From positions 1-45,123 of the IMG/VR virus record IMGVR_UViG_3300024518_001557: a stretch of 45,123 bases of DNA; one strand, 5' to 3'. The notes beneath the pieces are model-generated. The model ran no database searches. It was not told the origin of the DNA and saw only the letters and a program-made list of their open reading frames with translations. This stretch comes from a virus. The position numbers were made by a program, and so were the translations under genes. Below are positions 1,311 through 28,335 of the stretch, one piece after another; the stretch's first letter is position 1, and the number at the start of each line of letters is the position of its first letter.

Positions 1311-1506
1311 TACCGATGAATACACCTTCGGGTTTGGCAAATACAAGGGCCAGTTCTACGGTGATGTCCTAGATATCGACCCGTGGTATATCAAGTGGTG
1401 CAATGAAAGCATCGAGTGGTTTAATCTTCCAGACAACGAAGCAGACTACGTTGAATCCATGTGTGCAATCAGTGATCGCCCCAGTGACCCACTCGACTAC
1501 ACCTAA
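1297..1506 (+). CDS. Small protein resembling the exonuclease X C-terminal domain
   Basis: The start is taken as the ATG at 1297 rather than an upstream in-frame ATG at 1198, because this start gives a short overlap with the preceding gene and a sequence beginning right at the conserved region. The 69-residue product contains FGFGKYKGQFYGDVLDIDPWYIKW. It matches the F-G-K-Y-K-G...DP-x-Y-I-x-W pattern of the ExoX-like C-terminal/DUF3820 family, often found attached to DEDD exonucleases or as a free small protein. The exonuclease domain itself is absent, so it is not expected to be catalytic. It may be an accessory DNA-binding partner of the nuclease two genes upstream; that is inference. It ends tail-to-tail with the giant gene, overlapping by 4 bp. 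Confidence 0.7.
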   Translation: MSLIDTDEYTFGFGKYKGQFYGDVLDIDPWYIKWCNESIEWFNLPDNEADYVESMCAISDRPSDPLDYT

Positions 1507-4500
1507 CGCATCAGCTCCTTAGCTTCTTCCTCAAGGCGTTTCAACGAACCAAGGTACCGGCCCTTCTGCTGCATGTACTCCGCTTTACTGATCTTGCGCT
1601 GCCAGTGATCCTTCTCCAGAAAGTTTAGCCGGTGACGAATGGCCTGCACGGTGCGCTCGATATTCATCGCCTTCAGTGCCATGCCGTACTTAACATCATG
1701 TGGTGCCATCTTAATACCGAATGAAGATGCCAGAGCGGGCATTATCTCATACTGTCGGCCTAACCTGTCACGGCCACCAGTAGTTGCGATCCCAATCTTA
1801 TCCCAGTAGTACGAATAAGGTATCCATGGTGCTGACGGCCCGTATGCTTTCCACATCCAGTCCATGGTCTTCTCAGTTCCGGTTACCCAGTCGTCGGCCA
1901 GTGGATCGACAATCTCTTCACCGAAGAACCCGGTCTTGTTCAATGTGAACTCAAAAACCATTGCTATCGGCCCTGTAGGCATCACAGAGGCTGGTATAAT
2001 TGGCAGGGCAGCGTGATATTGCTCCCGATCAAATACATCACCCACCGGTATTAGACGCCTCACGTCCCAGAATGTCGGGTTATTACGCTTGTCGTTCCAG
2101 CCCATACGGATTAGCCGTGGTGCCCCAATCCATGTGTGGCCTGACACTTCATCGCGTAGTGATTTGCGCTCCCTGTCTTCATCACCCCCGGACAGCGCGT
2201 AACCAAGTGCGTTCATGCCGTAGGCAATGGTAAAGTACTTCGCCATCTTCCATGGGCGCTGCATAATAGACTTGGCTACAATCGGCACAGCCCGGTAGGT
2301 GTATGAAATAAATGGCAGAACAGTAGCCTTCGCTGCATTGATCCATGGCGCACTGATATCGTAGTTCAGGAACTGGTCACGGGCCGACATACCAGCCTCG
2401 ATTGCATCCATACCCTGATTTCTACGCCGGATATATGTTGCCATTCTGAAAACTTCATCTTCGTGCTGGTAGTAGTTCAGCATCTTCTGATCGAGTGCCC
2501 GCAGTCCAACCTTGCGGCCCTTGATATCGACACCTTGCCACAGACCATCCAGCAGCTTCATCATGAAAGCGAACTGCTTGTTGAATGGTAGCTTTTCCAT
2601 GCTCAGCATCATTTCTTCCAAGCCAACTGGCTTCGTGTCAGTTGCCAAGTGGATTTCATCAATCAACTTGTCCAGCACTTCGTTCTTCAGTTCCATTTCA
2701 GCGTAGCTGGCACCAAATGTGCCATTGGCCTTGGCTTCTTTGAAGATGTCACCCTTCGCCCGCATTTCCTTGATTGCCTGATACAGATCGGAGAAACGCA
2801 CATCGGCCATATCCATCAAGACCATGTTCGACATGATGTTGTTGAAGTGAACCACCGGGTTGCGTGCAGTTTTGTTCAGCTTGAACGTGGTCATGATCGT
2901 CTTCCAAATACTGGCCTGCTGCATCTGGTTAACCTGATTCAAGTCTTGGTATATCTCGGCCCTGACTACCCGGCCTGCCAGCGCACCATAGACTTTCGCC
3001 TGTGACTTTTTAATGCCGGTAGCTGGCACCCGAACCCATTCAGCCCCGGTCACCACACCGCCACGTTGTGTAGCTGCCTGAGCATCCATAATCAGACCAT
3101 CCAGTTGTGCCTGCTTTTCTTCGGCCTTCGGCATTGTCCATGCTTCGTTCTCAGCAATTTTCGAAAAGAACTCACCGTTAGCCAAGTCATGCGCCAGTAG
3201 CGCGAAGGTCTTACCCACGGTGTACCGGGCATCGACTATCTCACCCATTTCCTCACGCTCGGTCTTGGTGAAGTCGCGCCACAACTTGACCCGGCCTTTG
3301 CCCTGACCCCGGACTACAAATTCTTCGGATGTATATCCTTCCTGATCGAGTGGTGATAGGGAATAGTAGGTGCGTAATGATTTCTGACCATTGGCTGACA
3401 TCTGCCTGATCTGGTAGATAGTCATGCCGTCTTCAATCTCTTCCAGCCCAAGGTCTTCCTTTAATTTATCCGGCTTCAGGAAGAGAGACTTGCCCCGTTC
3501 CATAGTTTCTTCGCCGGATATACGGTGACGCTTGCCAGTGATGCTGTCGGCCCATTTCTGTAGTCCACTGCGATTCTGTTCGTACTGCTGGTAGACCCGG
3601 TGCAGGTACATGCCTTTGTTACGGTCGTATGATTCCTGTGAGATTAACCCGTATCCAACTGCTTCCTGTCCCAGCACTTCAACCCGTTTGCGTATCGGTT
3701 CGGTCACAGAATCCCACGCTTCATCACGCGGTGCTTCATTGGTCAGAATTTCGTGAATGTTCTTGGCATCCGCATCGGTCACGCCCAGAGATTCCATGAC
3801 CGCGATAATGTCCCTGACCTCATCGATCAGCATGGCTTTTTTCGAGGCAACCGATGCCTTCAGCAGTTTGAACTCCTTGGACAGACCATACTGGTCGATC
3901 AACCCTTTCGCCATGTGCTGCATGGCAGGGTGTGCCCACTTCATATTGTTATCGTAGAAGTTCAGCGCCCCTCGCAGGGTTGCCGACGATGTAAGCCTGA
4001 TCAGCTTCGGTACTTGTGTCGTTTCTGCAACACGCCACAGCGCTCTGAACACGGCATCTACCGGCTGACCATCCCTGATACCATCCATGACAGTATCTTC
4101 TGGTACCGATGATTCAGCCGTGGCTGTATTGGACTGGATCGAGAACAGGGTGTTGCCCTGTTGCGATGGGTAGATTGCATCGAACCCACCGGACTCGACA
4201 ACCTGTCGTGCAGAGGCAAGTATATTTGATACATCAACAGCGCTCAGGGTTAGTGGGAATCCAAGCTGTCGCATCAGTTTCCTGAACAGGGCCACTAACC
4301 GGTTCATGATGGTTAGGTTGGTTCCTTTTTCAGCAATATGAGCCAGCACTTCTTCGGCTATTTCATGCTTGCCTTCGACCGTGCTGATATCCACGTTATA
4401 TTCTTTCGCCAGCCGCTTCATATCAGCCGGGTACAGTGACGCCACCTGATTCAGTAATGGCTTGAGATCATTACCCATGAGCTTACGCAAGCCGTAGTGC

Positions 4501-7500
4501 CCTACCGCTTCGTGCAGGTAGACAGTCATGGCTTGATGTGGGTTGTCCAAACCATCCGCGACAATATAAATATTGCCTTCATGGAACACGCCCTTGATCA
4601 GGCCGTTCAGGTCTTGGTACAGAATCTTTTTCCGCACCGCTTCCGGCAACTCACTCTCGGACTGGACTACTTTGATCGTGCGCTGTAAGCGGAATGGCAT
4701 TTCGCCCAGTGCGCGTTTGGCCTGAGCTGCGGTAACCTTTTTCTCGGCCCGACCAACAGAGAACGCGGTACCATCCTTGGTCTTACTTTTACCAGCTATC
4801 GGTTCGCCAAATACTTCATCGGCCTTGCCGCTGATAAAGTCACCTTCGAACAGGAATGGCACCCCGATAATATCCGAACCATCATGCGAGGTATCACCTG
4901 ACTTGCCCTTCATGGATGTGTATCTGGTGATCTTGCCGAGATTAAATCCACTTGGCAGACCTTTCACAAAAAAGCCCTGCTTCTTCGCCCCGGTACTCTT
5001 GGTGTGGTAGACACCGCGGTGGGCTGTAATGCCATTTTCGTAGGTGTATACGCTGACATCCTGAACCTTGATAGCGTCACCAGCCTTAACTGCCGACTGT
5101 GGTATAGGCAAGGTCATGTAGTTAGCCAACAGGTGCTTGTCACCATTCAGAACGATAACGCGGGTACGCCGCATGATCTGGCCCAGCACTTCACGGGCAT
5201 CTGCAAAATCAACTGTGATATCAGCACGATCTTCACCATGAGACTGGTGAACATTCAGTGCCTTTAAAATATTCTGTAGCTTCGGGTCAGTAGTGAGTTT
5301 ATCGACACCCTCTTCACGGAACGTAACCCTGACCTTGCCCCGGTCATGGGGGTCACTGGTGATCCGCACGTTGCCACTACGACTCTGGAACCCGCGCATA
5401 GCACTGAACTCACCACCGGGGTTGTCAGTAAAGAAATTCATAATGACATCGGACGATGGTATCTCGGCATTGCCCTTGTAAGCGTTTTCAATACCCGTGT
5501 CCACTATGTGGTCAGGTATCTTGATACCCAGCATCCTCCGGCCCATGTAGTCGGTGAATTGAATGTACTGTCCACGGACTCCATCTTCCAGCTCAGCCTG
5601 ACCTACCAGTGGATTACCCAGAACCACCCACACGTCTTTAGTGTTGGCCCGCTGGGCCAGTGTTTCCTGATAGCGCTTGTACACTTCTTCCTTGCCGGTG
5701 AAGATCAGCTTTTTACGGGCCGCTGCCAGCGCTTCATCGTCGGTGATAACCTTGGGTTTATCTTTATCCTTGGATTGATCGGACTTCTGTTTAGATTTCC
5801 TGATTAACTCGTCAGCTTCTTTCCGTATGGCTGCGGTTTCGTAGTCAGTGTTGTCGGCATCCTGATCATGTACTGGGGTCAATTTCCAACCACTTACCTG
5901 TGATAGTGCGGCTCTCCATGAACCACGGGCATCACCCGGCCCCGGTGCGTTAAATACCACACGGGTTGCCACGTCACTCAGCGCCCATGGATCAGTAGAG
6001 TTACCAACCCGTTCCATTTCTGCCATGGTGAGCTGCATCTTCAAGTCCTGTTCACCGTACTTCAGTTCGACATTATAAACATTCCCGGTTTTCAGCATGT
6101 CAGTCAGCTCTTCAAAATTGTGCTTATTGACAGCCTGCTTACCCACTCGGTTTGCAGCAGCAACCAGCTCATCGAATCGGGTTTGGGTACCCTTCTTCAG
6201 CAGTGGTCTGACGATAACCTTACGCCTTTCAATATTTTCCAGCAGCACTCGTAGGCGGGCCTCGTTGCTACCAACCTTGTCAGCATTAATGCCTACCGCA
6301 CTTTCAACATACAGATCGTTCAGTTGTCGCTTGATCATTTGCAGATCGTTGGTTTCTGTACCAGACTCCAGCTCAATCGCAGCAATGTCTGCCAGAACCT
6401 TGTCCTGCTCATCCAATATTCTCTGCTTGACCGCTTCAACTTTTTCAGCAATCGGATCGACGTTAGTAGGCTTAACGGCTGAGATAATTTCCTGTACAGA
6501 CATTGGGTTGAACTCGATGTTCGCCAAAATTCTGACCAGCCATGCACCCGCATTAAAGCCCTTGCCAAAACTCTTGTCATTCGGATCGCCGCGTGGCTCA
6601 GCCAGTGTGATCTCTTCACGATAGTCGGCCTTGTAATCGAAGAATTGCTGCTCTAACTCGTACAAGCCTGCCGCCTTCAGGTTGTTGACATATTCGGTGT
6701 AATCTTCGGTAATCGTGTCAAAAAACTCTTGTTGTGCGTCAAAACTAAACAGGCCGATTTTACCGCTTACCCAGTAGGCAAGACCGCGCTCATGATTCTC
6801 TTTCGACTTCGGTATTTTGTTATCTACCCAGCCGAACAGTTCTCCGAACTCAGGATGAACCGCCAGCCACAGTTTAACAACATCGTCACCGTACATATTC
6901 AGGAAATCCACCACGTCGATCTGAGCCGAGCCTTCCTTGCTGGATGATGTCTGGGCGTTCAGTGACTCCATGTTCTGACGTAGCACGTTAATCTTACGCA
7001 CGTCTGCCGGGATCGCTGACCCGACTATCGTGTAAGTAGGTAGTCGCTTCTCACCGGTATCAGGATCGACTGCCATACCGGTACGGAATATCCGACCCAG
7101 CATTTGCTGGAATACGTTGATGTCGCCTGCCGGTTCAATGATGGTCATATGGCGACTACGCTGGTCACCAAACTTCTCACTGGAGTGCATACTGATACCA
7201 GTTGAACCTGACTGATTAATCACCAAACCATCAACATCAGACGGCAACACTTCACCACCCTTGCTTCGCTTATTACCATTGAACCCGTCAACGACATCCA
7301 GTTTTAGAAATGGTGGAATCCGTTTCAGGATTGGATTATCAGGATCGCTGTAATCGATTCCCACACCACCCTTGTGACGCCCGGTAATTTCCTGAATGTT
7401 AATGCTACGCATAATGCCCGGATGCGTCTTAGCCCTTTCCTCTGCTTTCTGTCGGATGTAATCAACAGGCGACAGTGGAAGGTCAATCGCGCTCAGGTCT

Positions 7501-10500
7501 TTTTTTGCCTTCGCAATTAATTCATCCAGCGTATTGTTGTACTCAACATCCTCACCCTTGGTATTTTCAGAAATCAAATCCAGTGTATCCCTGCCGAGAC
7601 TGCCACGAATTTTGTCAACCTCCTTATCACCCAGTGAAATGGTGGCGCGGTATGACTTGTTAACCCAGAACTCAAGCAGTGATGCCCAGTTCAGGTCTTT
7701 CATACTGTCGCCTTCTTTCTTGCCGTTGGTGTGAATGAACTCTTCAATCATCGCCATGTTGGTTTTATCCAATCCGATAAGCGGTTTCCGACCATTGGCA
7801 ATGTCGTTCAGGATTTCATCAACCGCGATGTCAGCCTTGGCTGCGGTCAGCAGCATGTCACGCAGGTTATGGATACTGTTACCAACCGGGGTGATTACAA
7901 CATTGGGTGGTGGGCCAGCGTCAGGGTTTTGAGCAAAAGCCAGCATGGCATCTTCGATTCGCTTGTAATCGGCCTGACTGATTGATCCATTATCAGCCAT
8001 GATGCCCGCCGCGATCATGGAAGGATATGTGCTGTTAAGTAAAGCTAGGCCATTGAGCGTTTTACCGACTTCTTTAACGATCTCCGCGTTCAATGGAATC
8101 AGTTTACGGACAATTTCGTTAATCTTATTGGTCGCATCCCTGTCACGTTTCGAGTTGGCGGTATCAGGGTCAGCAAGGTCAACCACGATCTCGACACCTT
8201 CGTAGGAAATCTCACGCCGGAACAACTGGCCGTTGCGGGTAATGGCTCGGGACATGACTTCCTGCAACTGGGTACCGCCAGCTTCCAGAGCGCCCACCAG
8301 TTCCCTCATGCCATCCATCGCATCAACCAGATCGGTATTGAAATAGAATCCCAAGTTACCGGCACGTTTCGCGAAGGTGGCTGACATATACACAGTGTTA
8401 TCAGCAGCCCGGATCATGCTGGTAAAGAACTCGTTAAGGTTCTGATTGGTGCGCTTCGCTGATGGTGGCTTATAACCAGCCGCCTTGTGTGACTCATCCA
8501 GTATCAGGACAGCATTACCATTAGCTACCAGCTCACGCATGGCATCACGCCGACCACCTTTTTCCGAGTTCATCTGGTCATAAGTGGTGAACATGGCATT
8601 GTAGCCCTTGGGCAACGTGCCGTTCTTAATCAGGTGTGCGGTGTTTCTTTTGGCAGCATCATCGGTCTGGTAATGCAGGTAGGTTTCCTCACCTTCCTTG
8701 CTACCCCTTTCCTTGATGCCTTCTTTGCCATTGGTAATCATCGGCACCACATTGTTGGTACCGGCATCAACCATATCGTAATACATATCAGTGTACAGGC
8801 CGGGGTCTGCCGTTACGAATATAGGCACCTTACCTTGAGCAATAACCCACCGAATAATACTGCCGCCTTGACGGCCCTTACCTACACCAGTCTGGTCGGC
8901 AATAATGACCGACCGGCCCCGCTCTTTCATCTGGTATATGGATGCTGCAACCGCTTCCATCTGAAGCGACATCAACCCTTCACGCATTTCAGCTTCAGTG
9001 TCGTACCCTAACTCTATCCGAACATAATCGACCAGAGAATGGATACCGTTTTCGGGGTCTAATACGGACAACTCCAAGTCCCTGACAGCCTGTTCCATAT
9101 ACTCGGCCATCGCGGTTGGAACCTGATAACCAAGTTCATTTTCATTCTGGTCAATGATTGGAACTTTAGGGGTCTGGGCTTCTTCGCTTACGTTTCCAGA
9201 TACTGGAGCAGAGGTAACACTTCGTAGACCCTTTTGCTCGTATAGCCACTGAGCTTGTTCTTCGACAGTAAGCTTCTTAAACCACTCAATTCCGGCAGTA
9301 TCCAAAGGAGTTCCTCTTCGTCCTCCACTTGGTACTTGTCCATCAGTTCCTGTTTCCCCGGCTCCAGCTCCAGTGCCTTCAGTAGTTTCGTCATCAGGAG
9401 TTCCTGATATATCCGATCCGTCATCGGGGGGCGTGGTTTCCCCACCGTCATCAGTTCCTTCTGTTCCTTCGTCAGCCCCGGTATCCGGGGTGTCCAAGTA
9501 GTCTGTATAGTTGATGTCGCCATTTCGCATGTCCTTTAAAAATTGAAGTAAGTAGGGCAGCATTTGCTTTTTCTGCTCCCCTTTAAACTGTTGCCCTAAA
9601 CCACGAATCGCATCAGTCGCCCCTTGACCACGTTCCTTTGATTTGGCATATATTCTTGACAGTACCGGTACCAACATTTCGTACTTCTGGGCGTTGATCG
9701 AAGGGTTACGTTCCTCAACTGTCTTTACCGAAAAACGGATATTGCCCGTACCCGGCGCACTGAAGATGTCGATAATGCTCTCGATATCGCTTTCATCCAC
9801 ACCAAGGGTTTCCGCAATAGCCTTGACATCGGCTGGTGGCGGTGCCTCGGTAGGTGCATTGGTTGGCCGTGGATTTCTGACACCACCGGCACCGGTACGC
9901 GGGCCGTTATCATTCGGTGGTTTGGGTGTGATAGGCTTCTCTTCTTCTTCATCACCCTCGGTCAGCAGGTCTTCGATTTCCTTATCGGTCAATCCGGTGA
10001 GATCACCCTTCTCCATTTCAGCTTCCTGCCATGCTGTACGGTCTTCAATCGCCTGTGCGATAACTTCATCCAAGCGCCCCAAGTAGTCAGCCTTGATTTC
10101 TTCAAACACGAAATGTGAGAAAAATTCAGGCCAGTCCCGGTCACCAATATTGGGAAAGTCCAGTGAACCATCAGGCTGTACTTCGACGTTATTGAAGATC
10201 AGTTGATACAAGGCTCTGAACTGTTGCCTCTCGTCACCCTCTGGGTAGATCGTACCAAGGTACCCAGTGCCAGCAGTTGCCACACCTTCACCTGACTTAC
10301 TGCTTTGCAGGAAGGGATTAAAGCCACCATCAGCAGCGATTGTATCCAGCAACCATGCTTCGCCAGCTCGGGCAAATAACTCCACTCCGCTCGACCAGTA
10401 ATTACCGCCTTTCTTGTCGTCAATTTTCTTGGCGTTTTTATAGAACCGGGTTCTTTCCGTATACCTGTACTTGTACTCAACAGCACGCTCAATATCATCC

Positions 10501-13500
10501 TTGAGCTGATTGACCAGTTGTTCGTCAGACCAGTCAGCATCCGCATTGGACTCGATAAACTGCTGTATTAACTGAGTGACTTTTTGATGGATCGCTTCGA
10601 TATTAACCGTTTCGATCAGATTTTCGTAGGTGGCAGATTCGACCAGTTGCAGGTTGCTACCGAAGTTGTGCATCCACTCATGCCCCAGTGAGCCATCACC
10701 GTTATTACGGTTGAAGTGCATGACCCGAACCCGATCAAGAGTGGACTTTGGATTCTTGAGAACCTTTTTCAGCTTGGTGCGTAGCGATTCAATCTTCTCG
10801 CTTTCGGAGTACATGACATTGTTATTGTCGAGAATTTCCTTGATCGCTTCCGATGTCAGTTCGTCTTCGCTCATCGCGATAGCCGGGTAGTTCGGACTGA
10901 AGAACGCAGCACCAGTACCCTTGCCGTGTCCGAGCGCACCGATACTCAGATAGATGTTATGGCCGACAACTTCCAGTGGGACGCCGAGAATGTAAGCCAG
11001 ATCAGCGTAGGCGTCATACGCCATGTTCCGATATAGTTGCGACTCAGTAATCTGTCCGGCTGGTGAGCTGGTCTTTACATGACCACCAACAGTGACGCCC
11101 AAAAAGCTGAAGGTTTTTTGCAGCTCTTCAGTGGATACGTTTTTGCCCTTGCGGTGATCCGGCATACCCGTTCTTTGCTCGTACAGGTCTTCCAGTTTTT
11201 CAGGAACATGCGGTGGATGATCACCGTAGTCAGACTCTAAAACATTTTCATCGGCGGTATGCTTCGTGTGCATGTAATGCAGGCCGTGATACTCGGTAAG
11301 CGCCTTCGGGAACAGGCCCGTAAAGGTCGCATAGAACGCACCAGTGGACAGCCCTGTATCCTCATCAACCTCGGGCTTGCGATCCATAATCCGATCCATG
11401 CGAGGGGTATCCCTGAACCACTCCATGTACTCTTCTTCGGACATTGGGATCAGTGTTTCCAGCAATCCTTCGTGTCGGAGTGTGTTGCTTATTTCATGTC
11501 GAGCCATTGCCGAGTGCAATTCCTTGACAGTCTTCGCTCCATCAACCAGACCCTGTATCCCGGCCATCATATCCATGTAGATTTCAGCGTAAGCCTCCAA
11601 GTCCTCGCGAGTCTGGACATTCATGTTCCGGTCTGCACTGAACTCTACCAGTGGCGTACCTTCGATAATTTTCATCAGGGCAGCGCGGGGTGATATGTCA
11701 TTATCTCGCCAGCCTTTAATGTATGGCTCCAGCCAGTCAGTGAAGCTTGGGATTTTCTTCATATACTCTTGATACAGACGCTTGGTGCCGGGTGTGGTTT
11801 CGGAATAAGACGCCGAATTAACATAGCCCGCTTTTGCGGTAGCTGCGATCAACTGGTTCAGATATTTTTTAGCTTCGGTAGGTCGCTCAGTGTTACGCCA
11901 CATTTCATGCGGTCTACGCAGCGTGGTACCGGTAGTGCCGGGGTCTTCATCTACGGTACGACCAACAACCTTGGCCGCTGACGTAATGATCCGGCTACGC
12001 TTGGTACTCGGGAAAGCCGACACATAGAACTTGTCGTCGGCTGCATCGAACTTGACCAAGAACCGCTTCTTACCCTTACCCATCAACCAACCATCTTCAG
12101 CCTGCTTAACCAGCTCGACTGTCAGGTCATTCATGGGTGCGCCGGACAGGTTAGTACCGCCCAGTAAAATCTTGTCGCCTTCGGCTAAGCTCTCGAAAGC
12201 TGTCCGAATAGCTTCCACATCAGTTTCGCCCTCTGGAGTTTCTTCCACAGGCTTATCCACAGGTTCTCCACCGCCGGGTACAGTTTTATCCTGCTCCAAC
12301 TTGGCCTGCTTAAAAAGCCGATCCACTTCATTGACATTGAACTTGTGAGTAGTTTTCCCATCGGGTTCTAAAACGTAACCGGGGTCTATGGTTATAGACG
12401 AAGGCATACTGCCGTCTTCCGGTGGTGCCTCATAAAGCCTGACTGTTATCAGATTGCCTTCTTTATCAAACTTCAGTACTGCCTTGTCGAATCCATCTTC
12501 CTCATCGATAAACCTGACATTCGGGATAGTGATGCGGGTGCCGCCGGTCTTTTCACCGACTTGCTGTGTGCCGGTCAATCCACCTTCACTACTCCATGGT
12601 TGCTCACCTTCCGCAACCGGAGTCTCAGGTACTGGCTCTTCAGCAGGCGGGGTTGGTGGAGTTGGTGGAGGTTTCGGCCCTACCGGTTCAGTTGGTGGTT
12701 CCGCTGGGGGAGTGCCGCCGCCTTCTTCACCACCTTCTTCACCACCTTCAGGGGTTTCAGGGGTGGGAGTTGGTGTTGCGTCAGAACGTAATTTCCTGCC
12801 AATATCGGCATAAGCTGTTTGGTCGCTTTCTGGTAGGGCATTAAAATCCTCAAGGGTAAAGTCTCCGGTTTCAATAGCCGCTTCAATAGCCTCACGGTGC
12901 TGTGCCCGATCATAGAACTCACCAGCAGCATCTTCAGCCTTCATTTGAAAGTCAGCGAGTTGAAGTGCGGTTGCTATCCCCGGTGCTGTTGAGTAAGGCT
13001 CTAATAGAAATTCATTCAGCTTCGCCCGCGCCTCGTTTTCTTCGGCGCTACTCATTTCACCAATAGGCGTATTGATAAGGTTGCTGGCGAATACAACTGC
13101 CTCGCGCAACTTCTCCCGGCTCTTCGCTGTCTTAAATCCGAGCATCTTGCCTAACGCATTAAGCTCCGTTCTTGGCAGGTTCAGGATTTCATCGACATCG
13201 ACGGTATCTGCTTTGGTGGCGGTAGCCATAGCGGCAATAGCGCCAGCAGCAGCAGGTGGCTCAGGAGTGTATGAGCCTTGCTCTTTCCCTGCCCTGAACG
13301 CTTCGAAGTTAGCCTTGTGAGCAGGCACGTCTGCTTCAGCCGCTGGTGGCAGCTCAACTGGTGGCTCTTCAACCGGTGGTGTCTCAGGCGGTATCTCGAC
13401 CGGCGGGGTCACAGGTGGCTCTGTAACAGGCTCTGCTGGGGGTTCACCCGGTGGAACAGGCTCAACTGGTGTCTCGGGTGGTGTCTCAGTGGGTGGCTCT

Positions 13501-15029
13501 ACACCCCCTGCTGGTGGTGTTGGCCCGACCTCACCCCCACCTGTAGTTTCGGGTGGTGGGCCGGTATCGCCCGGTACAGGCTCAACTGGAGCCTCTGGGG
13601 GTATCTCACCGCCAGCTTCTTCTTCAGCCCGCTTCCGTTCTTCCTCTTCATACGCGGCAAGATTTTCATCAGTCAACTCGATGAACGGGTCTTCTTCGCC
13701 TCCGATGGGTTGAGTCAGGTCAACGTCTTTGAACTCAGGCTTGCCACGCGAAATGATTCCGGCCAGTGCTTCGGCGCGTTCAAGCGGGTCTTGGATTTTG
13801 AGGGCTTCGTTAGCTTCGGCTTCATTGACTCGCAAGGCTTGATCGATCAGCGCCATTTCGTTGTCTTCAAGCGCTTCCTTGGTGCCCTGCTGTTTAGCCG
13901 CCTGATGAGCAGCAACAACTGACAGGGGCGATGCACCAAATGCCACACCCATGCCTTCCCTGAAAGCAGCATCGGGTACGCCTTCGTACAGGTTCCGGGT
14001 CTTGTCGATCAAATCCTTGTAGACCTTGTTCTGCACATACTGCTCGGTACCACCTTGAGCAGCCTCAGTTGGTATCTCGACGCCTTCCAAGATACCGAAA
14101 TTCTTCAGTGTTGACGTGGACAGCCGACCACTAATTGCCTTATCCACGTACCGACCGGCAACAGACCCGAGCATGAATGATGGTATGGCTATCGTCTTGG
14201 CACCTTCGATACCAGCCTCGCGAGACAGCTTGGTTCGTGCCATGTTATGGGCGGCATTGTGATCCAGCCCATAGTTATCGATCATATCGTAGTAGATGGT
14301 ACGAAATGCTTCCGACTGGTTCAGTACTTCGGCTGGCGCACGCATGACCTCTTCTTCGATAGCCTTACCGACCGAACCTGACACCATCGCCATTTCAGCC
14401 GTACCGTATGCACCTACGCCCAGTGCGGCGTCATATTTTGTAGCAAGGTCAGTGACCTGATTGCGGGCCATCCGTAACGCTTCAGCGTCCTTAATGCCCT
14501 TGCCCTTCTTGACTATTTCATCGGCACGCTTTCGTATGGTTCTGGTGGTATATGCCTTCAGACCCCCCTTCGCAACCTGCTTAAAGATACCGCCACCGAG
14601 TATCATGGCGGCTATCGAACCCAGCCCTGAACCAGCTAGTTCGGTGTAGGAATACAGGTCACCCCACGCATCACCAAACTCGCCAGTGTCTTTTATAAAT
14701 TGCTTACCTTCCAGCTCAGCGACAGCCTTTGGTTTCCACCGATCAATGTTAGCGGCGATCTCACTCAGGGCTTTATCGGTGTCTTTAAGGATGTCAGCAT
14801 CGAAGACATAATCGAGTGTTTTGGCATCGGAAGCGAAGCCGGAAACGAAGGATGATCCCATGGAAGCGAACAGGCTTCTGGCTAAGCCAGCACCTATCCA
14901 TGAAGGCTCACCACCACGGGACTGTATGCCACCCGAAACCTTGCGGAGCCGGTCAGCGTGGCGCTGTTCGGGTGTCTTAAATCGGTTGGGTATCCCGTAA
15001 GCCGGGGTGCCGTATGGGTCTTGTGCCAT
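1503..15029 (-). CDS. Giant polyvalent virion-type protein: metallopeptidase-like + strawberry-notch helicase + metallopeptidase-like
   Basis: This gene encodes 4508 residues in one uninterrupted frame, starting at an ATG preceded by GAGG. Visible order: residues 1-400 are Gly/Ala-rich and partly hydrophobic, like internal virion proteins. About 470-570 and 750-807 are Pro/Glu/Thr linkers, with a SAP-like helix pair (about 609-649) between them. About 1300-1560 resembles a polyvalent-protein-associated peptidase domain with HEWMH (1450-1454) and ELFARAGEAW near 1550. An acidic linker (about 1844-1907) precedes a superfamily 2 helicase of strawberry-notch type: GVGKGR with K2051, DESH 2178-2181, SAT near 2215 and GRIFRTG 2645-2651. 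HEAVGH at 3506-3511 is a second zinc-peptidase motif. The C-terminal 900 residues resemble large polyvalent-associated domains, with hydrophobic helices near 4237-4280 and a helical end. No NPPY/DPPY methyltransferase motif was seen. It is the last gene of the late operon, after two ejection-type genes, so packaging and injection are plausible but inferred. Confidence 0.9.
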   Translation of the reverse strand: MAQDPYGTPAYGIPNRFKTPEQRHADRLRKVSGGIQSRGGEPSWIGAGLARSLFASMGSSFVSGFASDAKTLDYVFDADILKDTDKALSEIAANIDRWKPKAVAELEGKQFIKDTGEFGDAWGDLYSYTELAGSGLGSIAAMILGGGIFKQVAKGGLKAYTTRTIRKRADEIVKKGKGIKDAEALRMARNQVTDLATKYDAALGVGAYGTAEMAMVSGSVGKAIEEEVMRAPAEVLNQSEAFRTIYYDMIDNYGLDHNAAHNMARTKLSREAGIEGAKTIAIPSFMLGSVAGRYVDKAISGRLSTSTLKNFGILEGVEIPTEAAQGGTEQYVQNKVYKDLIDKTRNLYEGVPDAAFREGMGVAFGASPLSVVAAHQAAKQQGTKEALEDNEMALIDQALRVNEAEANEALKIQDPLERAEALAGIISRGKPEFKDVDLTQPIGGEEDPFIELTDENLAAYEEEERKRAEEEAGGEIPPEAPVEPVPGDTGPPPETTGGGEVGPTPPAGGVEPPTETPPETPVEPVPPGEPPAEPVTEPPVTPPVEIPPETPPVEEPPVELPPAAEADVPAHKANFEAFRAGKEQGSYTPEPPAAAGAIAAMATATKADTVDVDEILNLPRTELNALGKMLGFKTAKSREKLREAVVFASNLINTPIGEMSSAEENEARAKLNEFLLEPYSTAPGIATALQLADFQMKAEDAAGEFYDRAQHREAIEAAIETGDFTLEDFNALPESDQTAYADIGRKLRSDATPTPTPETPEGGEEGGEEGGGTPPAEPPTEPVGPKPPPTPPTPPAEEPVPETPVAEGEQPWSSEGGLTGTQQVGEKTGGTRITIPNVRFIDEEDGFDKAVLKFDKEGNLITVRLYEAPPEDGSMPSSITIDPGYVLEPDGKTTHKFNVNEVDRLFKQAKLEQDKTVPGGGEPVDKPVEETPEGETDVEAIRTAFESLAEGDKILLGGTNLSGAPMNDLTVELVKQAEDGWLMGKGKKRFLVKFDAADDKFYVSAFPSTKRSRIITSAAKVVGRTVDEDPGTTGTTLRRPHEMWRNTERPTEAKKYLNQLIAATAKAGYVNSASYSETTPGTKRLYQEYMKKIPSFTDWLEPYIKGWRDNDISPRAALMKIIEGTPLVEFSADRNMNVQTREDLEAYAEIYMDMMAGIQGLVDGAKTVKELHSAMARHEISNTLRHEGLLETLIPMSEEEYMEWFRDTPRMDRIMDRKPEVDEDTGLSTGAFYATFTGLFPKALTEYHGLHYMHTKHTADENVLESDYGDHPPHVPEKLEDLYEQRTGMPDHRKGKNVSTEELQKTFSFLGVTVGGHVKTSSPAGQITESQLYRNMAYDAYADLAYILGVPLEVVGHNIYLSIGALGHGKGTGAAFFSPNYPAIAMSEDELTSEAIKEILDNNNVMYSESEKIESLRTKLKKVLKNPKSTLDRVRVMHFNRNNGDGSLGHEWMHNFGSNLQLVESATYENLIETVNIEAIHQKVTQLIQQFIESNADADWSDEQLVNQLKDDIERAVEYKYRYTERTRFYKNAKKIDDKKGGNYWSSGVELFARAGEAWLLDTIAADGGFNPFLQSSKSGEGVATAGTGYLGTIYPEGDERQQFRALYQLIFNNVEVQPDGSLDFPNIGDRDWPEFFSHFVFEEIKADYLGRLDEVIAQAIEDRTAWQEAEMEKGDLTGLTDKEIEDLLTEGDEEEEKPITPKPPNDNGPRTGAGGVRNPRPTNAPTEAPPPADVKAIAETLGVDESDIESIIDIFSAPGTGNIRFSVKTVEERNPSINAQKYEMLVPVLSRIYAKSKERGQGATDAIRGLGQQFKGEQKKQMLPYLLQFLKDMRNGDINYTDYLDTPDTGADEGTEGTDDGGETTPPDDGSDISGTPDDETTEGTGAGAGETGTDGQVPSGGRRGTPLDTAGIEWFKKLTVEEQAQWLYEQKGLRSVTSAPVSGNVSEEAQTPKVPIIDQNENELGYQVPTAMAEYMEQAVRDLELSVLDPENGIHSLVDYVRIELGYDTEAEMREGLMSLQMEAVAASIYQMKERGRSVIIADQTGVGKGRQGGSIIRWVIAQGKVPIFVTADPGLYTDMYYDMVDAGTNNVVPMITNGKEGIKERGSKEGEETYLHYQTDDAAKRNTAHLIKNGTLPKGYNAMFTTYDQMNSEKGGRRDAMRELVANGNAVLILDESHKAAGYKPPSAKRTNQNLNEFFTSMIRAADNTVYMSATFAKRAGNLGFYFNTDLVDAMDGMRELVGALEAGGTQLQEVMSRAITRNGQLFRREISYEGVEIVVDLADPDTANSKRDRDATNKINEIVRKLIPLNAEIVKEVGKTLNGLALLNSTYPSMIAAGIMADNGSISQADYKRIEDAMLAFAQNPDAGPPPNVVITPVGNSIHNLRDMLLTAAKADIAVDEILNDIANGRKPLIGLDKTNMAMIEEFIHTNGKKEGDSMKDLNWASLLEFWVNKSYRATISLGDKEVDKIRGSLGRDTLDLISENTKGEDVEYNNTLDELIAKAKKDLSAIDLPLSPVDYIRQKAEERAKTHPGIMRSINIQEITGRHKGGVGIDYSDPDNPILKRIPPFLKLDVVDGFNGNKRSKGGEVLPSDVDGLVINQSGSTGISMHSSEKFGDQRSRHMTIIEPAGDINVFQQMLGRIFRTGMAVDPDTGEKRLPTYTIVGSAIPADVRKINVLRQNMESLNAQTSSSKEGSAQIDVVDFLNMYGDDVVKLWLAVHPEFGELFGWVDNKIPKSKENHERGLAYWVSGKIGLFSFDAQQEFFDTITEDYTEYVNNLKAAGLYELEQQFFDYKADYREEITLAEPRGDPNDKSFGKGFNAGAWLVRILANIEFNPMSVQEIISAVKPTNVDPIAEKVEAVKQRILDEQDKVLADIAAIELESGTETNDLQMIKRQLNDLYVESAVGINADKVGSNEARLRVLLENIERRKVIVRPLLKKGTQTRFDELVAAANRVGKQAVNKHNFEELTDMLKTGNVYNVELKYGEQDLKMQLTMAEMERVGNSTDPWALSDVATRVVFNAPGPGDARGSWRAALSQVSGWKLTPVHDQDADNTDYETAAIRKEADELIRKSKQKSDQSKDKDKPKVITDDEALAAARKKLIFTGKEEVYKRYQETLAQRANTKDVWVVLGNPLVGQAELEDGVRGQYIQFTDYMGRRMLGIKIPDHIVDTGIENAYKGNAEIPSSDVIMNFFTDNPGGEFSAMRGFQSRSGNVRITSDPHDRGKVRVTFREEGVDKLTTDPKLQNILKALNVHQSHGEDRADITVDFADAREVLGQIMRRTRVIVLNGDKHLLANYMTLPIPQSAVKAGDAIKVQDVSVYTYENGITAHRGVYHTKSTGAKKQGFFVKGLPSGFNLGKITRYTSMKGKSGDTSHDGSDIIGVPFLFEGDFISGKADEVFGEPIAGKSKTKDGTAFSVGRAEKKVTAAQAKRALGEMPFRLQRTIKVVQSESELPEAVRKKILYQDLNGLIKGVFHEGNIYIVADGLDNPHQAMTVYLHEAVGHYGLRKLMGNDLKPLLNQVASLYPADMKRLAKEYNVDISTVEGKHEIAEEVLAHIAEKGTNLTIMNRLVALFRKLMRQLGFPLTLSAVDVSNILASARQVVESGGFDAIYPSQQGNTLFSIQSNTATAESSVPEDTVMDGIRDGQPVDAVFRALWRVAETTQVPKLIRLTSSATLRGALNFYDNNMKWAHPAMQHMAKGLIDQYGLSKEFKLLKASVASKKAMLIDEVRDIIAVMESLGVTDADAKNIHEILTNEAPRDEAWDSVTEPIRKRVEVLGQEAVGYGLISQESYDRNKGMYLHRVYQQYEQNRSGLQKWADSITGKRHRISGEETMERGKSLFLKPDKLKEDLGLEEIEDGMTIYQIRQMSANGQKSLRTYYSLSPLDQEGYTSEEFVVRGQGKGRVKLWRDFTKTEREEMGEIVDARYTVGKTFALLAHDLANGEFFSKIAENEAWTMPKAEEKQAQLDGLIMDAQAATQRGGVVTGAEWVRVPATGIKKSQAKVYGALAGRVVRAEIYQDLNQVNQMQQASIWKTIMTTFKLNKTARNPVVHFNNIMSNMVLMDMADVRFSDLYQAIKEMRAKGDIFKEAKANGTFGASYAEMELKNEVLDKLIDEIHLATDTKPVGLEEMMLSMEKLPFNKQFAFMMKLLDGLWQGVDIKGRKVGLRALDQKMLNYYQHEDEVFRMATYIRRRNQGMDAIEAGMSARDQFLNYDISAPWINAAKATVLPFISYTYRAVPIVAKSIMQRPWKMAKYFTIAYGMNALGYALSGGDEDRERKSLRDEVSGHTWIGAPRLIRMGWNDKRNNPTFWDVRRLIPVGDVFDREQYHAALPIIPASVMPTGPIAMVFEFTLNKTGFFGEEIVDPLADDWVTGTEKTMDWMWKAYGPSAPWIPYSYYWDKIGIATTGGRDRLGRQYEIMPALASSFGIKMAPHDVKYGMALKAMNIERTVQAIRHRLNFLEKDHWQRKISKAEYMQQKGRYLGSLKRLEEEAKELMR

Positions 15030-15063: not shown

Positions 15064-16746
15064 TTAAACTCGCTGTTTAACACCGCCGCTCACTTTAGCT
15101 CTCATTGTTGGTGATAGCTTTCGCAAAGCCTGCTGAAACACTTTCTTAGGCAAGAATTTATTGCCCCATTCATTCAGCCATTTCACTTTCTCAGTTTCAC
15201 TGAACTTCTGGTAAGGGCCATTGTATGCCTTCTCCGAAGCGGCGGCTAATTTTCTTTTGGCTTTTTGATTTATTTTTGGTGGCCCGCCTGTCCCTTTAGG
15301 TAAAGGATCGGCAAATGCACTACCCGGTTTACCCATGTTCAGGATTATATTACCAACATACTGACTAATGTTCATCGGGTTGTCAGCGGTTGGTCTAGGT
15401 AAAAGCTCTCGCTCAGCCAGTCCCGCACCATCGACTGCATCGGGTAGCGGCTCTTCAGTAGCGGCTGGTCGTGGTTCGGTTATGCCGCCGGGAGTACGCC
15501 CACCACTGGGGCTTCTTTCCCGTAAGCCTACCTTGCTGACTTGTGGTTCGTCGTCAGCACCGCCAGTCTTGGGCTTCTCACGGGCCTTCACTTCCCCGGT
15601 TTGTTTATTCATCACGGCAAAGCGGGAATACACTTCCGACTCCAGTGCCTTGAGGTCGGACTGGGCCTGTTCGAACATCAGGTGCTTCATCAATGATTCG
15701 TATTCAGGGTCACCCTCATCAGGACGGCCATTTGGAAACTGGTTTGGATCATCGAAGTTTTCATCACCCATTGCAGCGATTATTTCAGCCGCACGCTTGC
15801 GGCGAGTCTCAGGGTTAGTGTCCATCACCTTTTCAGCAATGTTCCCAATTTCCTGAGCCACTTCTGCCGGGGTGATCTTACTGACATCGTAGCCGTAAGC
15901 CCTGCCGATCCGACCAGTCATGGCCCGGACAGCCTGAGCTAACTGCTTGTCTCCTTCTTCACCAAAGTCAATAACGCCATTGGGGAATATCCGACCGTAG
16001 GTAGCTTGGATTTCAGTCTTTGAATTTTTGATCCACTTGTCACCAAGGTCATTCAAATCCTTGGTAGCATCTTTATCCAGCTCGTGCATTTTCGCAGCCA
16101 GATCAGCCTTTTCCTTCAGTTCATTAAGCAGCATGGTCTGAAGGAACTCAGGGCTGGACTGTTCCTGCAAATGCTGGGTAACTGCCCGTCGATTCGCGAA
16201 CTCCATTATTTCGCCGCTTTTAAACTCGACAACCCATCCATCGCCCTTTTTGGTAACAGGGCCGATGTCGTTTGCTACATTGTCATCGGTATTGAACGCT
16301 TCCTTCAGTTGCTCCATGGTCATGTTGCCAGTGTTCCATGCCTCACTCCATCCCTGAAACTTGCGCCGAGCTGTTGCGGCCTTCTGATCCAGCTTGGCCT
16401 GATCCAACTTCATACCGGATGTCTCCAGTTGCTGGGTCAGCAATTTACCTTGATTGACTACTGCCGTTGTACGGGCATCGATATTGGTCTGATCCAGAAA
16501 CTCTTTTGATTCCTGCTCACCAACCTTACCCTGTCGTCTGGCATCTTCCAACGCTAAAGTCGTAGCCTCTTCCTGCATAGGTCGTCGGCTAAGACCGTAT
16601 TCATATGTTTCAGTCTCACGCCGCTGACGTTCAGCTTCGGTAATGCGGGCCGCTTCCCGGTCGGACTCAGCCTCGATATCGCGCTGACGACCCCGGAAAG
16701 AGTCATACGCCTCATTTAAACCTTGGTACAGACCATATTGCGCCAT
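15064..16746 (-). CDS. Putative internal virion / DNA ejection protein, 560 aa
   Basis: The product is highly charged and largely helical. A strongly coiled-coil N-terminus (residues about 15-130, rich in Arg, Glu and Gln) is followed by a mixed region and a Pro/Gly-rich basic tail. It has no signal peptide or transmembrane helix. The start ATG at 16746 has AGGAG eight bases upstream. It lies between another ejection-type gene and the giant polyvalent gene at the end of the late operon, the place where podoviruses encode internal core proteins expelled into the host during DNA entry. The assignment rests on composition and position, not on a recognised domain. Confidence 0.6.
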   Translation of the reverse strand: MAQYGLYQGLNEAYDSFRGRQRDIEAESDREAARITEAERQRRETETYEYGLSRRPMQEEATTLALEDARRQGKVGEQESKEFLDQTNIDARTTAVVNQGKLLTQQLETSGMKLDQAKLDQKAATARRKFQGWSEAWNTGNMTMEQLKEAFNTDDNVANDIGPVTKKGDGWVVEFKSGEIMEFANRRAVTQHLQEQSSPEFLQTMLLNELKEKADLAAKMHELDKDATKDLNDLGDKWIKNSKTEIQATYGRIFPNGVIDFGEEGDKQLAQAVRAMTGRIGRAYGYDVSKITPAEVAQEIGNIAEKVMDTNPETRRKRAAEIIAAMGDENFDDPNQFPNGRPDEGDPEYESLMKHLMFEQAQSDLKALESEVYSRFAVMNKQTGEVKAREKPKTGGADDEPQVSKVGLRERSPSGGRTPGGITEPRPAATEEPLPDAVDGAGLAERELLPRPTADNPMNISQYVGNIILNMGKPGSAFADPLPKGTGGPPKINQKAKRKLAAASEKAYNGPYQKFSETEKVKWLNEWGNKFLPKKVFQQALRKLSPTMRAKVSGGVKQRV

Positions 16747-21330: not shown

Positions 21331-23157
21331 CTAATCCACCAATTCAGTGATCGATGACGCGACTGTTATCTGGTTAACATCTGTAAAGGTTTCGATCTCA
21401 ACTTCGTACTGGCGAAACTGACCGCCACTGGGGAAACGAAATGGTGTAGCATCGACACTGGTTGCGGTACCGATCAAGGTACCATCACCATACAATTTAA
21501 TGACCACGTTCTGGGTCATTGGCACTGAAGGCGGGGTTATCAAAACACTGGCATTAACTGCAAATTCATTAACCTGATTGCCATTCAATTCACCACGGAC
21601 AGACGAACCTAACAATACCCCATTGGCCGTAATAATATTTGCGATCAGGGTATTCAATGCCGCCAGCTCAGAGTTGGTTAGCAGCTCACCGTACTGGGCC
21701 AGAATCTTGCCACTGGTAATAGTTGCCAATGATCCAAGTGAAAATGTCTTCGACTTCCACTGATAAGCCAGTCGTTGCCCAGCCGCGTTAAACTCACTGA
21801 TCACATTAATATTCAAGTCACTGGTTTCACTGATGTATAACCGATCATTCTCTGGATCGGTGTATACCGCATCAACATCAATATTGAAGTCACTGGCGGA
21901 TATTTCATTGTTGGCTGTTTCGATAACCAACCCGGCATCATCAGTGAAGGCAATATACCGGGTATCCCAGTAACTTGCCCGCATCTGAGAGGGGTTTCGT
22001 TCCTGCCAAGTATCCCTGTCATACAGTGGCTCAGTCAGTAATGAGCTACCGCCATAACCAATCGAGTACAGTCCATCCGGGGTTGGGTAAATTACCCGGC
22101 CCTTCAGGGACACAATGCCCTGTTTGCTGACACACGCCTGATGATCAGGAAGAACTGTCATCGTCATAGTCGATGGATGGTTGCCCACCAACAACAAGGG
22201 TCTGTCCAAGGTCGTCACGACAACGGTATTGCCGAACAGGCCACCCCCCACAATCGTATCGAAAGTCGCCAGCCGGTATTTGATGGGCCATGCGTGAGGC
22301 TGGTATGGTTCGCTGAATAGAATCTCAAATAAAGTGAACGCGACCATGATGCCGTTGCCCGCATCAATCAAGCCAAATATATTAGCAGGCGGTAAATCAA
22401 AATCAGTTGACCCGACAACTTCACCCAGCAATGCGTCAATTACATTGTCTGTGTAAGTAGACGAAGGAGAGATTTCATCAACGAACCGGTAAGCTGTCTG
22501 GTTAACACCGACACTGGATCGATAAATTCGAACAAACTGTATTGTATTGCGGGTAGTCCCTGCACCCGGATAAGTAATCTCCAAGGCTGATAAATCAACA
22601 TTGCCGTCACTGTGATCAACATTAATAATAGCCGATGCCGGACTGAGGGCGCTTTCCTCTCCCCAGACAGACACAAAGGTGTACACATACAGCGAGGGAA
22701 TCACAGTGGTGCCAGCACCAGAGCTGCCAAGCGCAACCGTAGGGGCTGCTGTAGGGGCTGGTATGCCGACTAAAATACTGTTCTCGGGGAAGATATTCGA
22801 TCCACCGTTATCGACGCCTGTGAGATTGTCAGCGGCATTATCAGACGCTTGTAGCGTGCCGCTCTCGGTGTAGTAGATTCTGGAAGTCGTATCGTTGGCT
22901 ATGGGCGCTTTAACAACATCGACATCAGTTGTCCATGTCAGGAATAAATCAGTGCCTGTCCCTTTATACAGGTAGATGGTTTCCAGCTTCGGAGTCGTAA
23001 GGGCTGGGATAACATTCAGCACCTGACCACGCCATGACTGTAGCGCAAGCGAGGTCAGTTTCAGGTTCTCGGCAACCTGTCCCTGCTGACCGCCCAGCAG
23101 CCTTGAATCAATCCTCGGGGCGATTCCCTGAAATTCGGATATCTGTATTCTAGCCAT
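21331..23157 (-). CDS. Tail tubular protein B / nozzle-like protein, 608 aa
   Basis: The start is placed at the ATG at 23157 (MARIQISEFQGIAPRIDSRLL). This is the usual N-terminal pattern for podovirus nozzle proteins, which open with a short strand and a '-G-APR-' segment followed by Q-x-A-x-N. An upstream in-frame start four codons earlier is less likely. The body is beta-rich with conserved-looking stretches (YVYTFVSVWGEESALSPAS, YPTPDGLYSIGYGG, ASYWDTRYIAF) that match the T7 gp12-like family. It should form the distal tube of the short tail. The stop of the preceding gene overlaps the start by 8 bases. Confidence 0.75.
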   Translation of the reverse strand: MARIQISEFQGIAPRIDSRLLGGQQGQVAENLKLTSLALQSWRGQVLNVIPALTTPKLETIYLYKGTGTDLFLTWTTDVDVVKAPIANDTTSRIYYTESGTLQASDNAADNLTGVDNGGSNIFPENSILVGIPAPTAAPTVALGSSGAGTTVIPSLYVYTFVSVWGEESALSPASAIINVDHSDGNVDLSALEITYPGAGTTRNTIQFVRIYRSSVGVNQTAYRFVDEISPSSTYTDNVIDALLGEVVGSTDFDLPPANIFGLIDAGNGIMVAFTLFEILFSEPYQPHAWPIKYRLATFDTIVGGGLFGNTVVVTTLDRPLLLVGNHPSTMTMTVLPDHQACVSKQGIVSLKGRVIYPTPDGLYSIGYGGSSLLTEPLYDRDTWQERNPSQMRASYWDTRYIAFTDDAGLVIETANNEISASDFNIDVDAVYTDPENDRLYISETSDLNINVISEFNAAGQRLAYQWKSKTFSLGSLATITSGKILAQYGELLTNSELAALNTLIANIITANGVLLGSSVRGELNGNQVNEFAVNASVLITPPSVPMTQNVVIKLYGDGTLIGTATSVDATPFRFPSGGQFRQYEVEIETFTDVNQITVASSITELVD

Positions 23158-23830
23158 TATTAGTTGCAAATACTGTCAGCTTCGGCGCTGCGCATTGCCC
23201 GTCCTCATTTAAGTTTTCCCTGATATTAGTTAACCGCTTATGCCACTCGGCAAGCTGCTCATCTGAAATCTCACCAAACCCTGAAGCGCTTTCCTCAAAT
23301 GCAATGAGTGCATCAGTGTCTTCACCCATGTTAATCAGGCTTTGCTGGTTGGCCGATAACACATCCTGCCTGCTCAACCGCTCTGTAAAATGCCGCCTTT
23401 CTCCAGCCTCAAACTGTTCGCGGGTAAATTTAGGTAGCGCCTTGAAATGCTTGTATAAAACATTGAGTTCAGTAATAGCATCATTGATCAACTTCTTACT
23501 GTATGCCATTTCGCCTTTAGTTTTCTCGCGCTTAGCGTCTTCACGGCGTAGGTCATACTGGTTTAATCTTCCAGCCTCAATCTTGGCATTAATTTCATCC
23601 AAATCAATTTGATAGTTCGCCATAGAAAACTTTGCTTCCTGTAATGCCTGAATCCTATTTGACATACGCAATCCAATAGTCCGATATGCACGCTCAGGGG
23701 TGATAGACCCAGCGATTACAAACTTTTCAGTTTGATAGGCCGAATTTTCAAAGGGTATATCGAAGAAGGCATCGTTGACTTCATCCAGTATCGAATCAAC
23801 CTGCTCTATTGTTTTTAGTTCTGAGGCCAT
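23150..23830 (-). CDS. Hypothetical structural protein, 226 aa
   Basis: A largely alpha-helical, charged protein with long coiled-coil-prone stretches (about residues 60-150, rich in Glu, Lys, Arg, Leu), no membrane segment and no recognised domain. It begins with ATG at 23830 within the end of the preceding propeller gene and overlaps the nozzle gene by 8 bases. Its place among tail genes suggests a virion or assembly-chaperone role, which is inference from context alone. Confidence 0.7.
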   Translation of the reverse strand: MASELKTIEQVDSILDEVNDAFFDIPFENSAYQTEKFVIAGSITPERAYRTIGLRMSNRIQALQEAKFSMANYQIDLDEINAKIEAGRLNQYDLRREDAKREKTKGEMAYSKKLINDAITELNVLYKHFKALPKFTREQFEAGERRHFTERLSRQDVLSANQQSLINMGEDTDALIAFEESASGFGEISDEQLAEWHKRLTNIRENLNEDGQCAAPKLTVFATNNG

Positions 23831-27366: not shown

Positions 27367-28335
27367 TTACACTTTTTTGACAACACCTGTTGTCAGGTAA
27401 GCGCCCTGAATTACCTTGTAGCCGTACACGTTCAAGCCACGAATTAACTGGCCGAAAGTGTCCGGGTTAGGCAAAGTTTCCATCTTGGTCATTTGCGCGG
27501 CAAATGTCAGGCCAGCGTTGTGACCCCCAATAGGCTTATACAGAGTTGCCGTACCCTCGGTGATGCCGACGATGTTGTTCGACAGATAGATGTAAAACCG
27601 GTCTATCATGCCAACCAAACCGTTACGGGCAATCGACGTGCTGTCACCTGCCAGCGATGCGTCTTTCAGATCAGACTTCTTGATCCGTCCGATCATCCAT
27701 GCGGGCATAACCAGCCAGCGGCCAGTCTCAGGGACGTTCTGCTCATCCAGAACAGTACCCATGTCGATGATGTAATCGAGGATATTGGTGGCATCAACCA
27801 AAACGGCATTGGAACCATTGGTGCCAGTAGCGCCCAGATCGATATCGCCGGAGATTGCACCAGCAGTTTGGCCTTTATTGGCCGCAACAACATCGGTGAT
27901 GATGTTGGTCAGAACATCAAGGTCAACCGCGATTTTCATCTGTTCCGAAGCGTCCTCGGCCCAGTCGTCCATCAGGTTGATATCGGCCTGCATCGCATCC
28001 ACGTCATCGAGAGTGAACGCAAAGTACTTGCCTTTGTTGATGTCGAGCGAGGTGTTAGCCTGCTCAGGGGTTTCGTAAGAAAGCGCTTGACCGATCTGGT
28101 AGTTGTTGATCAGCAATGTTGGGGTGTTACGAATGATAACTGTATCACCGTAATCGCTGATTTCACCTTCGTAGTCGGTGTTCGCAATAGCCCCGAAAAC
28201 GGTCGCCGTGTAGAATTTCTCTACCAGCTTGCCTGACCATACTTCAGGGATAAACTTGGATGTGGAATCGGACGCCAGCGATGGATACGCTGCGGCGTTC
28301 TGCCAGTCCGATGCCGATCTTGTAATACCAGCCAT
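27367..28335 (-). CDS. Major capsid (coat) protein, 322 aa
   Basis: The length, position right after a scaffold gene and the N-terminal pattern (FIPEVWSGKLVEKFYTATVFGAIANTDYEGEI..YGDTVIIRN) fit HK97-fold coat proteins of short-tailed phages. The N-arm and E-loop region is followed by DxxKGKYFAFTLDDVDAMQAD, WLVMPAWMIGRI and a C-terminal strand-rich part. It builds the icosahedral head. A strong terminator directly follows. The ATG at 28335 has AGGAG about 9 bases upstream. No delta-domain or protease motif for processing was seen, so it is probably a scaffold-dependent unprocessed coat. Confidence 0.9.
   Translation of the reverse strand: MAGITRSASDWQNAAAYPSLASDSTSKFIPEVWSGKLVEKFYTATVFGAIANTDYEGEISDYGDTVIIRNTPTLLINNYQIGQALSYETPEQANTSLDINKGKYFAFTLDDVDAMQADINLMDDWAEDASEQMKIAVDLDVLTNIITDVVAANKGQTAGAISGDIDLGATGTNGSNAVLVDATNILDYIIDMGTVLDEQNVPETGRWLVMPAWMIGRIKKSDLKDASLAGDSTSIARNGLVGMIDRFYIYLSNNIVGITEGTATLYKPIGGHNAGLTFAAQMTKMETLPNPDTFGQLIRGLNVYGYKVIQGAYLTTGVVKKV

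What the first reader, a model, noticed from the sequence alone, without database searches (positions are those of the whole stretch)
1503..15029. A 4508-residue phage protein that joins a strawberry-notch helicase to two metallopeptidase-like domains
A single frame covers 30% of the window. Helicase motifs are clear: GVGKGR (K2051), DESH (2178-2181), SAT, and GRIFRTG at 2645-2651, the strawberry-notch type C-terminal motif. HExxH-like motifs lie on both sides (HEWMH 1450-1454; HEAVGH 3506-3511). Giant phage proteins of this kind are described as 'polyvalent proteins' (Iyer and colleagues) and are proposed to be injected with DNA to counter host defence; P1 DarB is the best-known helicase-bearing example. 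This combination, encoded as the last gene of a virion operon, may be an undescribed injected counter-defence or genome-entry machine.
Basis: partly seen in the sequence, partly recalled or inferred. Interest (0 to 1): 0.9.

Follow-up and report, generated by a model that had tools for sequence, protein, structure and literature searches.

The report
Giant phage polyvalent protein lacking methylase
This is one of the known giant multi-enzyme proteins that some phages are thought to inject with their DNA; it is unusual only in having lost the DNA methylase that almost always sits beside its helicase.

Summary
The minus-strand frame 15029-1503 encodes 4508 residues with an intact strawberry-notch-type SF2 helicase and two zincin signatures, one on each side. 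The combination is not undescribed: it fits the "polyvalent protein" class (Iyer 2017), and L002 and L007 carry the same helicase plus both zincin types. A comparable podovirus giant (JC1 gp69, 4515 aa, last gene of its virion module) was found in virions by mass spectrometry (PMC9144972). What is new is a loss. Of 78 distinct related ORFs of at least 2500 aa with this helicase, 77 also carry an adenine methylase; the window is the sole exception. Its sister L001 also lacks it, and a helicase tree places the pair among methylase-bearing relatives. The helicase, second zincin and C-terminal module remain conserved (50-70% identity), so this looks like a functional variant, not decay. P1 DarB is a poor model: its helicase does not match this family's profile. 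Best reading: a virion-packaged, ejected protein, possibly self-processed, whose helicase acts on incoming DNA without methylating it. Packaging, ejection and activity are inferred. A methylase elsewhere in the genome cannot be excluded, because the contig may be incomplete.

The parts
1503..15029 (-). 4508-aa giant gene
   Evidence: single open frame with ATG and ribosome-binding-site-like GAGG
13710..15029 (-). N-terminal region, residues 1-440; function unknown, contains the only hydrophobic stretch above threshold (131-149)
   Evidence: 53% identical to L001; hydropathy
13320..13709 (-). Pro/Glu-rich low-complexity linker, residues 441-570
   Evidence: composition; no match in L001
10167..11246 (-). 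CLCA_X/LPD1 zincin-like region, residues 1262-1621; HEWMH 1450-1454, conserved Glu 1550 and 1557
   Evidence: NCBIfam CLCA_X, Pfam LPD1, family alignment
9330..9752 (-). small conserved segment between zincin and helicase, in the interval where relatives also have the methylase; residues 1760-1900
   Evidence: 33% identical to L001; no methylase match in the window's six frames
6897..9122 (-). strawberry-notch-type SF2 helicase, residues 1970-2711
   Evidence: Pfam AAA_34 and Helicase_C_4; family profile E 2e-196; 50% identical to L001
8871..8888 (-). Walker A GVGKGR, residues 2048-2053
   Evidence: invariant in alignment
8487..8498 (-). Walker B DESH, residues 2178-2181
7077..7097 (-). motif VI GRIFRTG, residues 2645-2651
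   Evidence: QMLGRIFR also in L001
4206..4676 (-). second zincin, residues 3452-3608; HEAVGH 3506-3511, Glu 3560 conserved
   Evidence: family profile of 39 sequences with His/Glu/His and a downstream Glu near-invariant; weak model with zincin-like element order
1548..3947 (-). C-terminal module, residues 3695-4494, the most conserved part, distant LPD38 relative
   Evidence: 69-70% identical to L001; hhalign to LPD38 95.5%, E 1.5e-8 over 124 columns; viral structure hits to large polyvalent proteins
15064..16746 (-). 560-aa gene just upstream; presumed virion/ejection protein
   Evidence: synteny; 29% identical counterpart upstream of the giant gene in L001
16769..17521 (-). 250-aa virion structural protein
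   Evidence: phrog_8003 4.8e-13
21331..23169 (-). internal virion protein family
   Evidence: phrog_511 2.9e-117
27367..28335 (-). major capsid protein
   Evidence: phrog_267 8.3e-54
36249..38642 (-). portal / head-tail adaptor
   Evidence: phrog_332 3e-51
38940..40391 (-). terminase large subunit
   Evidence: phrog_2 3.1e-21; 45% to podovirus terminases

Best explanation
A phage-type polyvalent protein that is packaged in the virion and ejected with the DNA. The conserved C-terminal module (LPD38-like) and possibly the N-terminal region dock it in the particle. One or both zincin domains may cut the chain into working pieces. The strawberry-notch SF2 motor translocates along the incoming dsDNA, protecting it or helping it enter, without the methylation partner that nearly all relatives have; the methylase was lost in this lineage. 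Shown: domain content, gene position, conservation, methylase absence from this open frame and contig. Inferred: packaging, ejection, cleavage, motor activity and purpose.
For: Domain profiles. Last gene of a virion operon with terminase, portal, capsid and internal virion protein. 77 of 78 distinct related ORFs of at least 2500 aa carry methylase plus helicase; the window is the exception, and L001 lacks it too. The tree nests the pair among methylase-bearing rows (23-row set, SH-aLRT 99; nearest L002/L007, support 87). Helicase 50%, second zincin 51% and C-terminal module 69-70% identical to L001 with catalytic motifs intact, against unalignable linkers. The C-terminal module matches LPD38 distantly and viral 'large polyvalent' proteins. 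Precedent: JC1 gp69, 4515 aa, last gene of the virion module, 51 unique peptides in purified virions (PMC9144972). Polyvalent framework: PMC5512222.
Against: No direct evidence that this protein is in virions. JC1 gp69 was not compared by sequence here. Structure models were weak (pLDDT 57 and 52) with no PDB match. The contig may be incomplete, so a methylase could be supplied in trans. N4 virion RNA polymerase is packaged uncleaved despite its zincin domain (PMC5512222).
Confidence: 0.6

Rival explanations
1. A conventional anti-restriction protein: the methylase that works with the helicase is encoded as a separate gene elsewhere in this phage, outside the sequenced contig.
For: A separate-frame methylase near the helicase is seen in L104 and L111; the window has open ends and no terminal repeats.
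Against: No methylase match in any frame of the 45-kb window, nor in the 18.6 kb held of L001.
Confidence: 0.2
2. The helicase mainly drives or completes genome entry: an injected motor that reels DNA into the cell, comparable in role to RNA-polymerase-driven entry in T7 or N4-like phages.
For: An intact SF2 motor without methylase at the end of a virion operon; a second methylase-less set of about 1025-aa stand-alone helicases lies downstream of baseplate/tail genes.
Against: No evidence of direction, anchoring or membrane association; hydropathy shows only one marginal hydrophobic stretch.
Confidence: 0.12
3. The helicase is a relic: after methylase loss it is only a structural spacer in the giant chain.
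For: The methylase is gone and the Helicase_C_4 score is below the Pfam cut-off.
Against: All catalytic motifs are kept in both window and L001, with 50% identity across the domain while linkers are unalignable.
Confidence: 0.08

Closest known systems
Polyvalent proteins of phages (Iyer et al. 2017, PMC5512222)
   Same: giant multidomain protein, zincin metallopeptidases of HEXXH and HEXXXH form, SWI2/SNF2-like ATPase of strawberry-notch type, LPD1, LPD38-like module, late-gene position
   Different: helicase without the adenine methylase; the paper describes that methylase as nearly always fused to an SF2 helicase
Bcep22-like podovirus DarB-like protein, JC1 gp69 (4515 aa, PMC9144972)
   Same: near-identical size, last gene of a podovirus virion module, detected in virions there
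   Different: described there as DarB-like antirestriction; sequence not compared here
L002 (5279 aa) and L007 (4910 aa frame), IMG/VR
   Same: same helicase family, CLCA_X/LPD1 region and second zincin
   Different: both have the methylase; L002 also has SLT, GGDEF, InPase and a clear LPD38
Bacteroides phage BS-TP4 gp3 (5391 aa)
   Same: helicase, second zincin, LPD38
   Different: adds InPase, ddrB-ParB and methylase; no CLCA_X
Phage P1 DarB (2255 aa)
   Same: large SF2-helicase protein of the virion, antirestriction
   Different: family profiles of the helicase and methylase give no match; no zincin motif

Membership tests
Phage polyvalent protein | several unrelated enzymatic domains in one chain | tested here: met
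   helicase plus two zincin-type regions
Phage polyvalent protein | encoded with portal/terminase late genes | tested here: met
Phage polyvalent protein | phage-type LPD domains | tested here: met
   LPD1; distant LPD38
Phage polyvalent protein | packaged and transferred with DNA | not testable with these tools
   precedent only, JC1 gp69
Strawberry-notch-type SF2 helicase | AAA_34 first domain with motifs I, II, III | tested here: met
Strawberry-notch-type SF2 helicase | Helicase_C_4 second domain | tested here: inconclusive
   26.8 bits against a 30.5 cut-off in the window, but 69-86 bits in L002 and BS-TP4, which align with it
DarB-type methylase-helicase dyad | adenine methylase upstream of the helicase | tested here: not met
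   no match in six frames of the window; 77 of 78 comparable ORFs have it
DarB-type methylase-helicase dyad | sequence similarity to P1 DarB | tested here: not met
Zincin metallopeptidase, residue 3506 domain | HEXXXH plus downstream Glu ligand | tested here: met
   near-invariant in 39 sequences; fold not confirmed in PDB
Zincin metallopeptidase, residue 1450 domain | HEXXH plus downstream Glu in zincin fold | tested here: inconclusive
   HExxH and Glu conserved; weak model, no PDB match

The most novel reading that the evidence does not exclude
A lineage of phages has turned the methylase-helicase anti-restriction dyad into a helicase-only injected machine that protects or imports DNA by motor action alone, without modifying it.
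Probability: 0.25. Interest if true: 0.65.

Novelty: new variant of a known kind. Interest (0 to 1): 0.4.

Why it matters
The methylase and helicase of these giant proteins have been assumed to act as a unit. A lineage that dropped the methylase but kept the motor intact separates the two roles and makes the contribution of the helicase to phage entry or defence evasion directly testable. The survey also shows that giants of roughly 2800-6200 residues with this helicase are common, so size and domain mixture alone are not remarkable.

Tried and rejected
P1 DarB as a close homologue: rejected, no profile match. Frameshift or misassembly as the cause of methylase absence: unlikely, since L001 at about 50% identity shows the same arrangement. 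AlphaFold models of residues 1040-1650 and 3400-4508: low confidence, no PDB matches; only the viral-structure search gave family-level matches. Direct profile comparison of the two zincin types found no relation. phmmer against solved structures: none. A protein scan of viral contigs with the C-terminal region found nothing. The Bcep22 record was not held under the accession tried, so JC1/Bcep22 could not be compared by sequence.

Full report
Observation. The 4508-residue frame is real, on the minus strand from 15029 to 1503, with a plausible start. Every motif quoted is at the stated residue. The window is itself an entire IMG/VR record of 45,123 bases, possibly a genome fragment, with no terminal repeat found.

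Anatomy. Profiles give AAA_34 at 2016-2281, Helicase_C_4 at 2602-2719, LPD1 at 1537-1615 and CLCA_X starting at 1286. The HEWMH motif lies inside the CLCA_X/LPD1 region; two Glu residues downstream (1550, 1557, in VELFARAGE) are invariant among the family sequences that cover them and are candidates for the third zinc ligand. I infer that LPD1 is the distal half of one zincin, but the model was too weak to test it. The second zincin has HEAVGH and a conserved Glu 3560, near-invariant in 39 sequences; its model shows the expected order of strands, motif helix and Glu helix at moderate confidence. The last 800 residues form the most conserved module (69-70% to L001), distantly related to LPD38 and structurally matched to viral proteins named as large polyvalent proteins or helicases. 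Low-complexity linkers separate the blocks.

Context. Upstream lie genes for terminase subunits, portal, scaffold-like protein, capsid, head-tail proteins, an internal virion protein and fibres, all on the same strand. The terminase is closest to podoviruses such as Cronobacter phage Ss1, Vibrio phage VA-RY-3 and BcepC6B; the internal virion protein resembles those of PBC5, POI1126 and PEp14. PBC5 carries genes annotated DarB-like, and Pseudoalteromonas phage Y3 has a 3421-aa giant at the equivalent place with ParB, methylase, CLCA_X and second-zincin matches but no match to this helicase. The slot at the end of the virion operon is therefore a known place for modular giants.

Relatives. The helicase alignment found 161 viral relatives, of which the best 80 were kept, and 30 in bacterial and archaeal genomes. 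Among fetched loci, 78 distinct ORFs of at least 2500 aa carry the helicase and 77 also carry an upstream adenine methylase; the exception is the window. L001, its closest relative, also lacks it. The tree puts the pair inside a strongly supported set with methylase-bearing rows, so loss is the simplest history; the immediate neighbours (L002, L007) have support 87, which is not decisive. A further set of stand-alone helicases of about 1025 aa also lacks the methylase in the DNA held, downstream of baseplate and tail-spike genes. Limits: the survey was selected by helicase similarity and capped, and contigs may be partial.

Mechanism. By analogy with published work, such proteins travel in the virion: JC1 gp69 (4515 aa, end of virion module) was detected in purified particles (PMC9144972). 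Iyer et al. propose that zincins process the chain and that methylase plus ATPase protect incoming DNA (PMC5512222). Here the methylase is gone while the motor is kept intact, so the most likely role is motor action on incoming DNA without modification: displacing proteins, blocking restriction enzymes, or aiding entry. I put 0.6 on a packaged, ejected polyvalent protein with an active motor, and less on any specific purpose.

Novelty. The class is known and the domain mixture occurs elsewhere; the methylase-less giant is a new variant as far as this survey and the held literature show. A library search for strawberry notch with bacteriophage returned only the 2017 paper.

Noticed in passing
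L017 9836-12913 and similar loci L016-L039: Stand-alone helicases of about 1025 aa of the same family lie downstream of baseplate and tail-spike genes, without a methylase in the DNA held.
   Followed up: partly
L117 24147-37521 (Pseudoalteromonas phage Y3): A 3421-aa protein with methylase, CLCA_X and second-zincin matches but no match to this helicase: the reverse pattern. It is followed by an ART gene.
   Followed up: partly
L116 8950-24698 (Sinorhizobium phage PBC5): The DarB-like gene is annotated as two frames with a 1.6-kb gap, suggesting an interrupted gene or sequencing error.
   Followed up: no
L005 (Acinetobacter phage MD-2021a record): The record labelled a phage carries a TraY-like conjugation protein and an IS4 transposase, and looks more like a conjugative element.
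   Followed up: no
window 30955-33510, minus strand: 851-aa fibre- or spike-like protein whose C-terminus weakly matches the Pgp3 C-terminal domain (Chlam_vir, 23.9 bits, below cut-off).
   Followed up: no
window 137-1096, plus strand: Exonuclease gene opposite the late operon (phrog_2139, 5.9e-39; weaker CRISPR/Cas-associated exonuclease match).
   Followed up: no
window 35598-36083, minus strand: DUF5675 protein within the virion operon (3.7e-23).
   Followed up: no
L004 26961-34898 (BS-TP4): A second giant gene of about 2645 aa of unknown function in the same phage.
   Followed up: no
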